Part shown: one piece after another, positions 11,716 through 20,888 of the stretch
Layout of the letters: every line of letters begins with the position of its first letter
How positions within the stretch are numbered: position 1 is the first letter of the stretch
Origin: an uncultured Subdoligranulum sp.
GTDB lineage: Bacteria > Bacillota_A > Clostridia > Oscillospirales > Ruminococcaceae
Length of the DNA stretch: 20,888 bases
Reading direction: 5' to 3'
Assembly (NCBI RefSeq): GCF_937890665.1
Contig: NZ_CALADU010000138.1
Coordinates: 1-20,888 of the forward strand
The notes under the pieces: model-generated
Databases searched by the model: none
What the model was told of the DNA's origin: nothing
The model's input: only the letters and a program-made list of their open reading frames with translations
Position numbers and translations under genes: made by a program

Positions 11716-12297
11716 TTACCGGCCCTGCAGGGCGTCCAGCAGGGCGAGCCGAATTTCGTAGTCGCCGAATACCAGTGCGTTTTCCGCTTCGGTGGGATAT
11801 TCCGCCGAAGCCCCCGACACGCACAAAGCCGGGTAGAGCACACAAAACCAGTTGTGCCCCTGCGCGGCCCCCACTTCCACCCGTAGGGCCGTGTATGTCC
11901 CGCCGGGCAGTGCAAACTGACCGTAATCTCGGGCATCAAACCCAAAGGATTCCAACCGAACTGTCGCCGTCTGCCCGCTGTGGGCTTTCAGCAACGCACG
12001 GTTGGCCGCTGCCTGCAACCTCGGCACGGCATTTTGTAGCGCATGGGTAGCTTGTTGGGGTGTTGCTGCCTGTGTAACGGTTTCGGGCAGCGTCTCCAAT
12101 ATGGCATCCCTCACTTTTAGTTTGAGCAGTTGGTCCTCAATGGTATCGCTGTTCGCCAGCACGTGCAGCCGGATCGTATCGGCACGCACCTGCGCTGCCA
12201 CCTGTTCCCGGCGGCTTGCCGCCAGAGTAAGTACCACGCTCAGCAAAAAGCCCAGACCAACGCCCAGTTCCCACATCCATCTTCTGCGATGTTTCAT
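11716..12297 (-). CDS. spoIIR: Stage II sporulation protein R
   Basis: In endospore formers this secreted forespore protein signals across the septum to SpoIIGA, which then activates sigma-E in the mother cell. The 193 residues start MKHRRRWMWELGVG with one membrane or signal segment (about 9-28). The family hallmark 'IRLHVLANSDTIEDQLLKLKVRDAIL' follows (around 43-68), and 'GHNWFCVLYPALC' lies near 150, matching the G-x-N-W-W-C-V-L-F-P-P-L-C pattern of the family. The start at 12297 is chosen because GGAGGG lies about 9 bases upstream; a frame opening 12 codons earlier lacks a site. It follows ispE after 47 bases. The gene implies a spore-forming lineage, though no other sporulation gene is in the window. 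Confidence 0.92.
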   Translation of the reverse strand: MKHRRRWMWELGVGLGFLLSVVLTLAASRREQVAAQVRADTIRLHVLANSDTIEDQLLKLKVRDAILETLPETVTQAATPQQATHALQNAVPRLQAAANRALLKAHSGQTATVRLESFGFDARDYGQFALPGGTYTALRVEVGAAQGHNWFCVLYPALCVSGASAEYPTEAENALVFGDYEIRLALLDALQGR

Positions 12298-12344
12298 GAC
12301 CTCATCCCTCCCTGTACTGGGAGTATGGGCCAAACCTTCGCTGT

Positions 12345-15070: not shown

Positions 15071-16039
15071 TTACCCTACCGCATCGTCGGATGCAGCGGC
15101 ATCACTGTTGCCTTCCTCGGAAGAAGTCGCCTGTGCGGCGTCGCCCTCCTCAGCAGCATCGGTATCGGCTTCTGCCGCCGGTTCGCTTTCCGCTTCCGGT
15201 GCCGGCGTAACCTGCGTCGCGTCACTGCCGGCCGTACTGCTGGCAGCATCCGTCATGGAAGAATTCAGCTGGCTTTCCACCATGCTCTGGGCGTCCTGCG
15301 TAACGGCCGCCGTGGGAGAGGGTTCCGGCGTAGCTTCCACCTTCATCTCGCTCTCCTGCAAAGCGGTGAGATACCATTCCCGGTTTTCGCCGCGGGTAAA
15401 GACGTAATCCATATATTTGACCGGATCCGTCGGCGCTGTCAGAGAAAGCTCACCGCTGGCACTGTTGCTTGCCGTGGGAACATACCCCACCGTCACATAC
15501 AGCTTGCCGCCGGAAGTGGCGATCTTTTCTACCTTCGGGGTGTACTGCGCCACCGAGCTGGTAACGGGGACCAGATAGCACTGTTTTTCTTCGTTGTACT
15601 GGTAGACAAATTCATCGGTGCTGAAGCTGCCTTCGCTCACCACATAGTCGGAGCCCAGCAGGTTGGCGATGTAGGTGTCGATCTCCAATTTCGGGATCAT
15701 GGCCGAACCGGTGTCGGGATCACGCTCGTACTGGTCCAAGCTGCCACCGTTCTTCTGAATCTCGTACACGGTACCCCAGATAGCGGCCTGTTTGAATACA
15801 CCGGGGTCCACTTCGTTGACGTCGTCAAAGGTCAGCGGATCCAGCATGACCATGCCGTACAGGCGGTCTTCGTAAGAGGCGCGGCGGCCGGAATCATCCA
15901 GTACGTTGCGCAGCGCCCCCACCAGCCAGCCAAACACCGTGAATAAACCGATGAGCGCTAACAGCAGCGAGATGCCGCCCAGAACCTGACGCGCCAAGCG
16001 GCGACTGTTGCGGACTTGTTCTTCTCTGTAATTTGCCAT
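15071..16039 (-). CDS. Unrecognised single-pass membrane protein with acidic tail
   Basis: 322 residues; no family recognised. A basic cytoplasmic start (MANYREEQVRNSRRLARQ) is followed by one membrane helix, about 18-43, and an extracytoplasmic region. Residues about 50-235 look folded: 'YGMVMLDPLTFDDVNEVDP', a Trp-containing stretch 'QAAIWGTVYEIQKNGGSLDQ' and 'GGKLYVTVGYVPTA'. From about 237 the chain is disordered, Ala/Glu/Ser/Thr/Asp-rich and strongly acidic, ending without a sorting signal. AGGAG lies about 14 bases before the ATG. It starts 60 bases after rfbB and ends at a terminator, so it is probably the last gene of the rhamnose operon. A cell-envelope role is plausible from topology and context only. 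Confidence 0.85.
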   Translation of the reverse strand: MANYREEQVRNSRRLARQVLGGISLLLALIGLFTVFGWLVGALRNVLDDSGRRASYEDRLYGMVMLDPLTFDDVNEVDPGVFKQAAIWGTVYEIQKNGGSLDQYERDPDTGSAMIPKLEIDTYIANLLGSDYVVSEGSFSTDEFVYQYNEEKQCYLVPVTSSVAQYTPKVEKIATSGGKLYVTVGYVPTASNSASGELSLTAPTDPVKYMDYVFTRGENREWYLTALQESEMKVEATPEPSPTAAVTQDAQSMVESQLNSSMTDAASSTAGSDATQVTPAPEAESEPAAEADTDAAEEGDAAQATSSEEGNSDAAASDDAVG

Positions 16040-19168: not shown

Positions 19169-19197
19169 TTGACGCAGGCCAAGTCATATGATACAAT
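19169..19197 (+). promoter_or_regulatory. Promoter of the lipoprotein-sortase genes
   Basis: TTGACG (19169-19174), 17-bp spacer, TACAAT (19192-19197), with TG one base before the -10 (extended -10). Transcription would start near 19204, leaving a leader of about 78 bases. Confidence 0.82.
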
Positions 19198-19270: not shown

Positions 19271-19295
19271 GCGTTTTCGCGTTGAAACGCTTTTT
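19271..19295 (+). promoter_or_regulatory. Hairpin around the TTG start codon with T run
   Basis: GCGTTT (19271-19276) pairs with AAACGC (19285-19290) and is followed by TTTTT (19291-19295). The TTG start codon (19282-19284) is in the loop and the last G of AAGGAGG (19265-19271) is in the stem. The layout resembles a weak intrinsic terminator or a translation-limiting hairpin placed on the start site. The stem is only 6 bp, so this could be chance. Confidence 0.4.
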
Positions 19296-19620
19296 GTGTG
19301 CGGCCTTTTTTATTGCGCTGGTTGCGCTGTTGGCCGCATGTGGGGTGCTGAACAAGGCCAATGATCCCGCACAGTCTACGGCTACGCCGACCAGTTCTAC
19401 CTCTCGCACCCAGCATAGTGATACCGTCACTGTCAATGAAACCACGGCTAAAGTGGATGTGGTAACGGCACAGAGCAGCCAGACCCCCACTTCCACCGCA
19501 GAGCCTTCCCAAAATGTCCCCACTCCGGCCACCGGCGATTTCCCCGTATTGTATCTGGCGGGCATCGTTGGCCTGATCCTTATTTGTTCGGCGGGACTTT
19601 TGATGTTGCGAAAGATTTGA
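19282..19620 (+). CDS. Small lipoprotein with C-terminal sortase signal
   Basis: 112 residues, no known domain. Residues 1-20 form a lipoprotein signal peptide: MKRF, a hydrophobic core and the lipobox LAAC with Cys20. Residues 21-80 are a Thr/Ser/Pro/Gln-rich linker without predicted fold. Residues 81-112 form a cell-wall sorting signal: TPATG (81-85), Asp, a hydrophobic stretch (87-109) and the basic tail RKI. A class B sortase follows 67 bases later, so it is the likely enzyme; clostridial class B sortases are known to use (S/P)PxTG-like motifs. The start must be TTG because an in-frame TAA lies six codons upstream; AAGGAGG is 10 bases before. If both signals work, Cys20 would be lipidated and Thr84 joined to the wall or another amine. 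It could also be only a lipoprotein with a membrane tail. Confidence 0.88.
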   Translation: MKRFLCAAFFIALVALLAACGVLNKANDPAQSTATPTSSTSRTQHSDTVTVNETTAKVDVVTAQSSQTPTSTAEPSQNVPTPATGDFPVLYLAGIVGLILICSAGLLMLRKI

Positions 19621-19625
19621 TATAC

Positions 19626-19648
19626 AACGCCCTGCGGGGCGTTTTTTT
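19626..19648 (+). terminator. Terminator between the lipoprotein and sortase genes
   Basis: AACGCCC (19626-19632) and GGGCGTT (19637-19643), 7 bp with a 4-base loop, followed by T7 (19642-19648). No separate sortase promoter was seen in the next 40 bases, so it probably lets a fraction of transcripts through, giving more substrate than enzyme. Confidence 0.85.
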
Positions 19649-19687
19649 ATTATTACCTTCTATTTTTGCTGAAAGGAGTCGTCTGTC

Positions 19688-20629
19688 GTGGCCAAACGGT
19701 ACCGCAGATTGCGGGGTGACACCGCCTACTATCCCTTTGCCGCCCGCACCGGCTTGCGCGCCCAGCAAAAGCGCCATGCCCGTCGACTTCGTATCGCCGG
19801 CGGCGCTGCTTTGCTGCTTGCAGGTGCCTTGTTCCTGCGGCAGACAGTTTTTCGCGGCGGACAGCCGGAACCGCCGGCGCCGGTTGCTCCCGTGGTGGAT
19901 CACGCCACTGAAGAATCCGCTCATGTGCAAATTCTCCCCGTAGCTGCCACCCGCGACGCGCTGTCCCGCACCGAGGAGGCCGACGCTGCCGCCCACACCA
20001 CACCGGAGGCAGCCGCCACCCCCGCCCCTGAACAAACGGCAAAGGTCTTGTCACAGTATCAAGCGCTCTATGAGCAGAATCCCGATCTGGTGGGATGGCT
20101 TCGGATTGAAGGGACCGGCATCGATCTGCCGGTGGTACAGACCCCCGGCGACAACGAGTATTATCTGCGCCGCGGCTTTGACGGGCTGTACGCCACCGGC
20201 GGCACACTGTTTTTGGACGAACAATGCAGCCTTGATCCAAACCTTCCCACCGCCAACTGGCTTATCTATGGCCACAACATGGCAGACGGCTCCATGTTCG
20301 GTCACTTGACCTACTACCGGGAGGAGTCCTTTTTCCGTCAGCACCCCACCTTCACCTTTGACACCTTATATGAAACAGGGACTTGGCAGGTGGTGGCAGC
20401 ATGGGACACAACCCTCGGAGCCGACGAACTGCCTTACTACACCTTTTTTGACGCCGACACCAAACTGGAATGGGAAAAACGCGTAAATGCCATACTGGAT
20501 CTCGCCCTGTACGATACCGGCGTAGTCCCGGAATACGGCCAGCAGTTGCTGACGCTTTCCACTTGCGGTGACACCCGTCTGAATACCGATACCCGTTTTG
20601 CCCTTTTGGCCGTGCGGGTGGAGGATTGA
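19688..20629 (+). CDS. Class B sortase
   Basis: Transpeptidase that cleaves a sorting motif and joins the threonine to an amine of the cell wall. 313 residues. A basic cytoplasmic start is followed by one membrane helix (about 36-50), a Pro/Ala/Glu-rich disordered spacer (about 57-118) and the catalytic domain. The domain starts YQALYEQNPDLVGWLRI, the class B lead-in, then 'IDLPVVQ' and 'DNEYYLRRGFDG'. Catalytic residues are His196 in IYGHNMADGSMFG, Cys293 in TLSTC and Arg303 in DTRFALLAVR. The start is GTG, with AAAGGAG about 10 bases upstream. The gene follows a small protein bearing TPATG, its probable substrate. The unusually long disordered spacer would set the active site some way from the membrane. 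Confidence 0.94.
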   Translation: MAKRYRRLRGDTAYYPFAARTGLRAQQKRHARRLRIAGGAALLLAGALFLRQTVFRGGQPEPPAPVAPVVDHATEESAHVQILPVAATRDALSRTEEADAAAHTTPEAAATPAPEQTAKVLSQYQALYEQNPDLVGWLRIEGTGIDLPVVQTPGDNEYYLRRGFDGLYATGGTLFLDEQCSLDPNLPTANWLIYGHNMADGSMFGHLTYYREESFFRQHPTFTFDTLYETGTWQVVAAWDTTLGADELPYYTFFDADTKLEWEKRVNAILDLALYDTGVVPEYGQQLLTLSTCGDTRLNTDTRFALLAVRVED

Positions 20630-20717: not shown

Positions 20718-20888
20718 ATGGCAGAATTCACCTATGAAATTACCGAGCGCATCGCTGTGCTCTCCACCAATGCACGGGGCTGGGAGCGCCAGCTGAACAT
20801 GATTAGTTGGAACGGCAACACCCCCAAGTACGACATCCGCGATTGGTCCCCCGACGGCAGCCGCATAGCCAAAGGCATCAGCCTGACC
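20718..20888 (+). CDS. YdbC/PC4-like protein, N-terminal part (runs off the window)
   Basis: 57 codons are visible, starting MAEFTYEITERIAVLSTNAR, then GWERQLNMISWNGNTPKYDI and RDWSPDGSRIAKGISLT. The sequence 'W-x-x-x-L-N-x-x-S-W-N', then 'K-Y-D-I-R-x-W-x-P-D', then 'G-K-G-I-x-L-T', is the pattern of the small YdbC family, whose fold resembles the eukaryotic coactivator PC4 and which binds single-stranded DNA. In this family the protein is about 70-80 residues, so roughly 15-25 residues are missing. GAGGAG lies about 11 bases before the ATG, which is slightly long. It has its own promoter, so it is probably separate from the sortase. Confidence 0.85.
   Translation, partial: MAEFTYEITERIAVLSTNARGWERQLNMISWNGNTPKYDIRDWSPDGSRIAKGISLT

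What the first reader, a model, noticed from the sequence alone, without database searches (positions are those of the whole stretch)
19282..20629. Small protein with both a lipobox and a sorting signal, paired with its own class B sortase
Seen: the 112-residue product has LAAC at 17-20, a 60-residue Thr/Ser/Pro-rich linker, then TPATGD, a hydrophobic stretch and RKI; the next gene encodes a class B sortase with His, Cys and Arg in place. Known: lipidation anchors the N-terminus in the membrane, and sortases join the Thr to wall amines. Inference: if both act on one chain, it becomes a short molecular tether between membrane and peptidoglycan, with no other domain. That differs from usual sortase substrates, which are cut free of the membrane. 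It could act as a spacer, a wall-distance sensor or a scaffold. I know of no described system of this form, but I could not search.
Basis: partly seen in the sequence, partly recalled or inferred. Interest (0 to 1): 0.72.

Follow-up and report, generated by a model that had tools for sequence, protein, structure and literature searches.

The report
Short lipid-to-wall tether with own sortase
A gut bacterium encodes a tiny floppy protein that seems built to be fixed to the cell membrane at one end and to the cell wall at the other, next to an enzyme that could do the wall-fixing; nobody has yet tested it at the bench.

Summary
Window 19282-19617 encodes a 112-residue protein: LAAC (17-20), 60-residue linker, TPATGD, hydrophobic stretch, RKI. 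The next gene is a class B sortase with His196, Cys293, Arg303. The window is Gemmiger-like. The pair is fixed in the genus: small protein in 33 of 35 genomes, sortase in 35 of 35, adjacent in all 33; in the other two a contig start cuts the sortase. In 34 sequences Cys20 and TPxTG are present in 34, the linker is 51-68 residues. TPxTG was not seen on 16 other readable sorting signals; nine readable signal peptides of other sortase substrates look type I. Best explanation: a short lipid-to-peptidoglycan tether made by a dedicated sortase, working like a Gram-positive Braun's lipoprotein. Against: only 19 of 34 match a strict lipobox and 24 of 34 have AxA after Cys20; six of 81 homologues lack the lipobox; the linker holds a conserved core, so it is no plain spacer. 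Neither anchor is proven. New variant of a known kind.

The parts
19169..19197 (+). sigma-70-like promoter TTGACG-17-TACAAT before the small gene
   Evidence: a TTGACG-type match starting 106-127 bases before the start codon in 18 of 34 loci; consensus match only
19282..19620 (+). gene of the 112-aa dual-signal protein (TTG start, TGA stop)
   Evidence: homologues in 33 of 35 genus genomes
19282..19338 (+). signal peptide, residues 1-19, ending in the lipobox LAA|C
   Evidence: sequence; alignments
19339..19341 (+). Cys20, predicted lipidation site
   Evidence: 34 of 34 in the genus set
19342..19521 (+). linker, residues 21-80, predicted disordered (pLDDT under 50 for 31-71)
19423..19464 (+). 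conserved linker core, residues 48-61 (V49, V51, E53, A56 invariant)
19522..19536 (+). sorting motif TPATG, residues 81-85
   Evidence: TPxTG in 34 of 34
19537..19617 (+). sorting tail, residues 86-112: Asp, hydrophobic helix 87-110, RKI
19626..19643 (+). intrinsic-terminator-like hairpin, followed by a T run, between the two genes
   Evidence: 3 such sites in the region scanned, 2.6 expected in shuffles; a terminator-like site within 120 bases of the stop in 21 of 34 loci, some of them weak
19688..20629 (+). class B sortase, 313 aa; N-terminal membrane helix, disordered stalk, sortase domain; H196, C293, R303

Best explanation
The small protein is a short flexible tether. It is exported, lipidated and cut at Cys20 (Lgt/LspA pathway), and held meanwhile in the membrane at its other end by the sorting tail. 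The neighbouring class B sortase then cuts between Thr84 and Gly85 and joins the Thr to an amine of peptidoglycan or its precursor. The product is a 65-residue unfolded chain (Cys20-Thr84) fixed to the outer face of the membrane at one end and to the wall at the other. Shown here: the pair, both signals on one chain, their conservation, the predicted disorder. Inferred: both modifications, that this sortase is the one acting, the peptidoglycan amine as acceptor, and the tether role.
For: Adjacent same-strand pair in all 33 genus genomes where both were found. Cys20 34 of 34 with Ala/Ser before it 34 of 34, TPxTG 34 of 34. TPxTG has the lowest pN/pS of the protein (0.15). The motif looks private: no TPxTG among 16 readable sorting signals (20 regions fetched, out of 26 anchor matches in two genomes), and of 10 TPxTG[D] DNA matches in three genomes the only two that form a sorting signal are this protein. 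The strict lipobox is not a habit of this host's sortase substrates: 9 of 9 readable signal peptides (15 regions fetched) have a type I-like [AV]xA site and none a strict lipobox; one of them (L154) passes a looser pattern. The model shows two end helices and nothing folded between. C. difficile's class B sortase is described as linking Thr to mDAP (PMC5270738, passages).
Against: No biochemistry, no SignalP or LipoP run. A strict lipobox [LVI][ASTVI][GAS]C is met by 19 of 34 genus sequences, a looser one (recalled PROSITE-like) by 26 of 34; Cys or Phe stands at -3 in the 15 that miss the strict pattern. AxA motifs lie within residues 21-36 in 24 of 34 (not in the window's own protein), though in Ala/Thr-rich sequence where they arise easily. 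Of 81 complete homologues, 2 lost Cys20 (P0003, P0092), 3 keep it but have Leu or Val before it and an AxA-like site after it (P0095, P0097, P0102), 1 has Thr before it (P0019). Residue 21 is Gly in 85%; a Gly at 'C+2' has been tied to lipoprotein release (PMC3415414, passages; whether that numbering means residue 21 is my reading). Linker length is not shown to be held by compensation. The conserved linker core and the conserved tail (76% mean pairwise identity with the motif, 74% without, against 70% for the sortase catalytic domain) are not needed by a plain spacer. PF00746 does not match the protein at E<=1.
Confidence: 0.47

Rival explanations
1. Ordinary small wall-anchored surface peptide: signal peptidase I removes the signal, Cys20 is not lipidated or lies in the removed part, and the sortase leaves a free Thr/Ser-rich chain in the wall.
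For: P0095, P0097 and P0102 keep Cys20 without a usable lipobox and have an AxA-like site just after it; AxA motifs follow Cys20 within residues 21-36 in 24 of 34 genus sequences; other readable sortase substrates here use type I-like signals.
Against: In the 34 genus sequences the residue before Cys is always Ala or Ser and Cys20 is invariant while the signal peptide averages 54% identity; the AxA motifs begin 8 or more residues beyond Cys20, past the hydrophobic stretch, and the window's protein has none there.
Confidence: 0.22
2. Sentinel rather than tether: the point is the membrane tail that sortase cuts off, or the state of the linker, read by another membrane protein as a report on wall synthesis.
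For: The tail is a little more conserved than the sortase catalytic domain (76% with the motif, 74% without, against 70%), with G97, L98, G105, L106 and L109 invariant; the conserved linker core could be a binding site. Sensing of sortase-cleaved tails in streptococci is recalled; one search found no paper of it in the library.
Against: I saw no sensor gene beside the pair: the neighbours tested are rfbA (13 of 20 loci) and a PC4-domain gene (16 of 20); other neighbours were not annotated. The tail may be conserved only for recognition by this sortase.
Confidence: 0.13
3. Uncut membrane loop: lipid at one end and tail helix at the other hold the chain to the membrane, and the sortase works on other proteins.
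For: TPxTG differs from the [IMV]PxTG and LPxTG signals common in the same genomes; no cleavage is shown.
Against: TPxTG invariance and linkage to one sortase in 33 genomes.
Confidence: 0.08
4. The sortase joins the Thr to a protein lysine, building a polymer or decorating another surface protein.
For: Some class B sortases serve pili, and two such (3psq, 4y4q) are among the fold matches.
Against: The substrate has no folded domain in the model; I noticed no pilin-like gene next to the pair, but did not search for one.
Confidence: 0.07

Closest known systems
Braun's lipoprotein (Lpp) with L,D-transpeptidases, Gram-negative bacteria
   Same: Works alike: a very small protein with a lipid on its N-terminal Cys and a C-terminal covalent bond to peptidoglycan (recalled; a paper on Lpp detachment, PMC8263019, seen in the listing only).
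   Different: Recalled: Lpp sits in the outer membrane, is a helical trimer and is linked through a C-terminal Lys by another enzyme class. The Pfam search lists no Lpp family at E<=1.
Lmo1136 of Listeria monocytogenes
   Same: Listed as an LPXTG protein that is also a lipoprotein, so both signals on one chain have been noted (PMC3415414, passages).
   Different: Recalled as a larger internalin-like protein; no partner sortase gene of its own is stated in the passages seen.
EF2685/EF0750 family of small sortase-dependent proteins (NF053819)
   Same: Model of 105 positions, sorting signal at the end; weak match over residues 1-111 (22.5 bits). A relative just under the family cut-off (L145, 42.7 bits) has a lipobox-like ISAC followed by an AxA-type site and an LPRTS motif.
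   Different: Our protein is below the curated 47 bits. The one full-length member over the cut-off that I read (L144) has a signal peptide without Cys and an LPKTN motif; the other match over the cut-off (L143) shows no readable signal peptide.
Class B sortases (S. aureus, B. anthracis and Listeria SrtB; C. difficile SrtB)
   Same: Fold and catalytic residues.
   Different: Partner motif TPxTG on a 112-aa protein with a lipobox; 135.5 bits, under the equivalog cut-off of TIGR03064.

Membership tests
class B sortase | sortase fold closest to solved class B enzymes | tested here: met
   best matches are SrtB of B. anthracis and S. aureus, then S. pneumoniae, C. perfringens, Listeria, C. difficile
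class B sortase | catalytic His, Cys, Arg | tested here: met
   H196, C293, R303 invariant in 27 of 27
class B sortase | curated score of TIGR03064 | tested here: not met
   135.5 bits against 153.75 (an equivalog cut-off; E 1.7e-39)
class B sortase | transpeptidation of this substrate | not testable with these tools
   needs an enzyme assay
bacterial lipoprotein (type II signal) | N-terminal positive charge, hydrophobic stretch, lipobox ending in Cys | tested here: met
   window: LAAC meets the strict pattern. Genus: Ala/Ser before Cys20 in 34 of 34, strict pattern 19 of 34, looser 26 of 34
bacterial lipoprotein (type II signal) | lipidation and LspA cleavage | not testable with these tools
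   needs labelling or mass spectrometry
sortase substrate (cell wall sorting signal) | xPxTG motif, hydrophobic helix, positive tail at the C-terminus | tested here: met
   motif and tail in 34 of 34; helix 87-110 in the window's protein; two basic residues
sortase substrate (cell wall sorting signal) | match to Pfam PF00746 | tested here: not met
   not among the families at E<=1
EF2685/EF0750 family (NF053819) | curated score 47 bits | tested here: not met
   22.5 bits
Braun's lipoprotein family | sequence match to the Lpp family | tested here: not met
   no such family listed at E<=1
Braun's lipoprotein family | lipid at the N-terminus and covalent bond to peptidoglycan at the C-terminus | not testable with these tools
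   both predicted, neither shown

The most novel reading that the evidence does not exclude
A minimal protein whose whole job is to be bonded at one end to membrane lipid and at the other to peptidoglycan, made by its own class B sortase: a Gram-positive counterpart of Braun's lipoprotein that arose separately, with a linker core that adds a binding or sensing step.
Probability: 0.4. Interest if true: 0.8.

Novelty: new variant of a known kind. Interest (0 to 1): 0.6.

Why it matters
Sortase substrates are usually thought of as cut free of the membrane and displayed. A chain kept on the lipid as well would fix the membrane to the wall at a set distance, something known from Gram-negative envelopes through Braun's lipoprotein; I found no description of it for a sortase system in the searches named under Tried and rejected. 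It would make the question of what sets the membrane-wall gap in such gut bacteria testable with two small adjacent genes.

Tried and rejected
Own-genome search: no whole genome is held for the window. EF0750-type family as home: rejected by score; of three relatives read, one over the cut-off has no Cys in its signal, one over the cut-off has no readable signal, and one under it has a lipobox-like ISAC, so the layout may be wider than this genus. Spread beyond the genus: in 297 family genomes, 149 had a match at E<=0.001, but of the rows listed only 5 covered model positions 1-111, and those 5 genomes are genus members; the other listed rows are partial, mostly from model position 1 or 2, and I did not check whether those ORFs are lipoproteins; not all rows were listed. 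The 13 other sortase loci (L021-L033) showed one sorting-signal ORF nearby (L021, IPQTG, no lipobox) and no dual-signal protein (a motif filter that can miss cases; with another filter also shows a large SPKTG protein in L028). Length compensation in the linker: not significant. Other class B sortases of three genus genomes: in 12 regions read I saw no second dual-signal small protein, but the script's ORF picking is crude: it missed the known small gene in L173 and several sortases. Literature searches. One search found one paper holding both Gemmiger and sortase (an acne review, listing only); searches found none. Seen as passages only: PMC2375117, PMC3415414, PMC5270738; no paper was read whole.

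Rows dropped before counts: of 113 proteins, 29 were set aside as incomplete by a motif filter and 3 more (P0059, P0101, P0104) as read from a wrong start, leaving 81 (lipobox there judged by a permissive pattern). Start and Cys were placed by a pattern that asks for a small residue before Cys; all 33 genus loci met it, none was dropped. L034 and L065 carry the same protein, so 34 rows hold 33 distinct sequences. Some of the 33 genus genomes are the same organisms as loci L001-L020.

Full report
What is there. The sortase ORF is 19688-20629 (313 aa, GTG start). A promoter-like TTGACG-17-TACAAT stands at 19169-19197 and a hairpin followed by a T run at 19626-19643, between the genes; such consensus sites are hardly more frequent here than in shuffles (3 promoters against 1.5, 3 terminators against 2.6). 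In related loci a TTGACG-type match 106-127 bases before the start is seen in 18 of 34 and a terminator-like site within 120 bases after the stop in 21 of 34, some weak. If the terminator works, the small protein would be made in excess over the sortase, as a structural substrate would; that is inference.

Where it comes from. The sortase's nearest relatives are Gemmiger genomes (79-80% identity at best). Of the 20 loci L001-L020, 19 hold the small protein just upstream of the sortase; L019 begins inside the sortase. In a scan of 35 genomes of the genus the small protein is found in 33, one copy each at E<=1e-9, and the sortase in 35 of 35. In the two without it (G312, G323) the sortase match itself is cut: it begins 4 and 45 bases from a contig start, at sortase residues 101 and 82. 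In all 33 the two genes are on one contig and strand, roughly 60 to 220 bases apart (coordinates). In 297 genomes of the family, the listed full-length matches are all genus members. So this is a genus-wide, stably kept pair.

Conservation. Across 33 genomes plus the window (33 distinct sequences) Cys is at residue 20 in 34 of 34, the residue before it is Ala or Ser in 34 of 34, TPxTG is present in 34 of 34, and the linker is 51-68 residues, mean 58.3, sd 3.7. Mean pairwise identity is 54% for the signal peptide, 45% for the linker, 76% for TPxTG to the end (74% without the motif), 70% for the sortase catalytic domain and 43% for the sortase stalk. pN/pS is 0.46 for the signal peptide, 0.62 for the linker, 0.15 for TPxTG and 0.28 for the tail; synonymous sites are near saturation, so the ratios are rough. 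The Cys20 codon varies synonymously (TGC 29, TGT 5).

How good the lipobox is. The window's LAAC is a strict lipobox. In the genus 19 of 34 meet the strict pattern and 26 of 34 a looser one; the 15 that miss the strict pattern have Cys or Phe at -3. AxA motifs occur within residues 21-36 in 24 of 34, none in the window's protein; they lie in Ala/Thr-rich sequence some 8-14 residues past Cys20.

What does not fit a plain spacer. Inside the linker the core at 48-61 (roughly PVxVxETYAxxDVV) has four invariant residues, V49, V51, E53 and A56, and pN/pS 0.45 against 0.68 for the rest of the linker. The tail is more conserved than a hydrophobic anchor needs. Linker length is steady, but the two half-lengths do not compensate each other beyond chance.

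Exceptions. Of 81 complete homologues from the protein search, 79 have Cys20; P0003 has Ser and P0092 Asp. P0095, P0097 and P0102 have Cys20 preceded by Leu or Val and followed by an AxA-like site, so that lineage probably uses type I cleavage or an odd lipobox; P0019 has Thr before Cys.

Controls in the host. In two Gemmiger genomes (26 anchor-family matches at E<=1) 20 regions were fetched; 16 show a sorting signal ([IMV]PxTG, LPxTG, and the odd IKATG and IAQTG), none TPxTG. A DNA pattern for TPxTG[D] gave 10 places in three genomes; two form a sorting signal and both are this protein (the third genome's copy is TPATGE, outside the pattern). Of 15 regions meant to show the N-termini of other sortase substrates, 9 show a signal peptide, read by eye as type I-like ([AV]xA); none has a strict lipobox, one (L154) passes a looser pattern and also has AFA after it; 6 were not readable. 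Five genomes carry 6-10 sortase-domain matches each, some of them partial, so other enzymes exist for the other motifs.

Structure. The small protein is modelled as helix 3-25, disorder, helix 87-110 (mean pLDDT 60.5; 31-71 under 50). The sortase model (mean pLDDT 71.2) has a long N-terminal helix 16-54, a low-confidence stalk 68-111 and a class B fold.

Mechanism and scale. After both steps the chain would be Cys20-Thr84, 65 residues, about 23 nm if fully stretched at 0.36 nm per residue and much shorter as a coil; that is of the order of the membrane-wall gap recalled for model Gram-positive bacteria. This is arithmetic and recall, not a measurement.

Known systems. It works like Braun's lipoprotein but is no member of that family. 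Dual signals on one chain have been listed before for Lmo1136 (PMC3415414, passages), and a sub-threshold relative of the EF0750 family (L145) has a lipobox-like site with a sorting-type end, so the layout may be wider than Gemmiger. No paper on this pair was found in the searches named in Tried and rejected. One source labels a homologue (P0007, Subdoligranulum variabile) as an LPXTG-motif cell wall anchor domain protein. I therefore call it a new variant of a known kind, with about even odds that the tether reading is right.

Noticed in passing
L167:3099-3602 and L171:1642-2223: Other class B sortases of the genus lie directly after a gene for a 168-194 aa protein, in L167 with a lipobox, with no sorting signal seen; a second lipoprotein-sortase neighbourhood of unknown meaning.
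   Followed up: partly
L145:1-901: A 120-residue-frame relative of the EF0750 family (42.7 bits, under the cut-off) has a lipobox-like ISAC followed by an AxA-type site, and an LPRTS sorting motif: possibly another dual-signal small protein.
   Followed up: no
window 19688-20629: The sortase family has an invariant extra Cys180 outside the active site, a conserved cytoplasmic start (YxxLxG-like) and an invariant GQPxxP just outside the membrane helix.
   Followed up: no
window 20718-20885: A PC4-domain gene (PF02229) starts right after the sortase; it is found downstream in 16 of 20 loci L001-L020, in L011 about 2 kb further off.
   Followed up: partly
window 11716-12333: A stage II sporulation protein R gene (PF09551) sits on the minus strand.
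   Followed up: no
window 15071-16039: A 322-aa protein with an N-terminal hydrophobic segment and a long acidic Ala/Ser-rich tail has no Pfam match at E<=0.01.
   Followed up: no
P0095, P0097, P0102: A homologue lineage keeps Cys20 but replaces the lipobox by a likely type I site; a natural test of whether lipidation matters.
   Followed up: partly
L015: A record titled Faecalibacterium sp. UBA1360 carries the pair like the Gemmiger loci and may be mislabelled.
   Followed up: no
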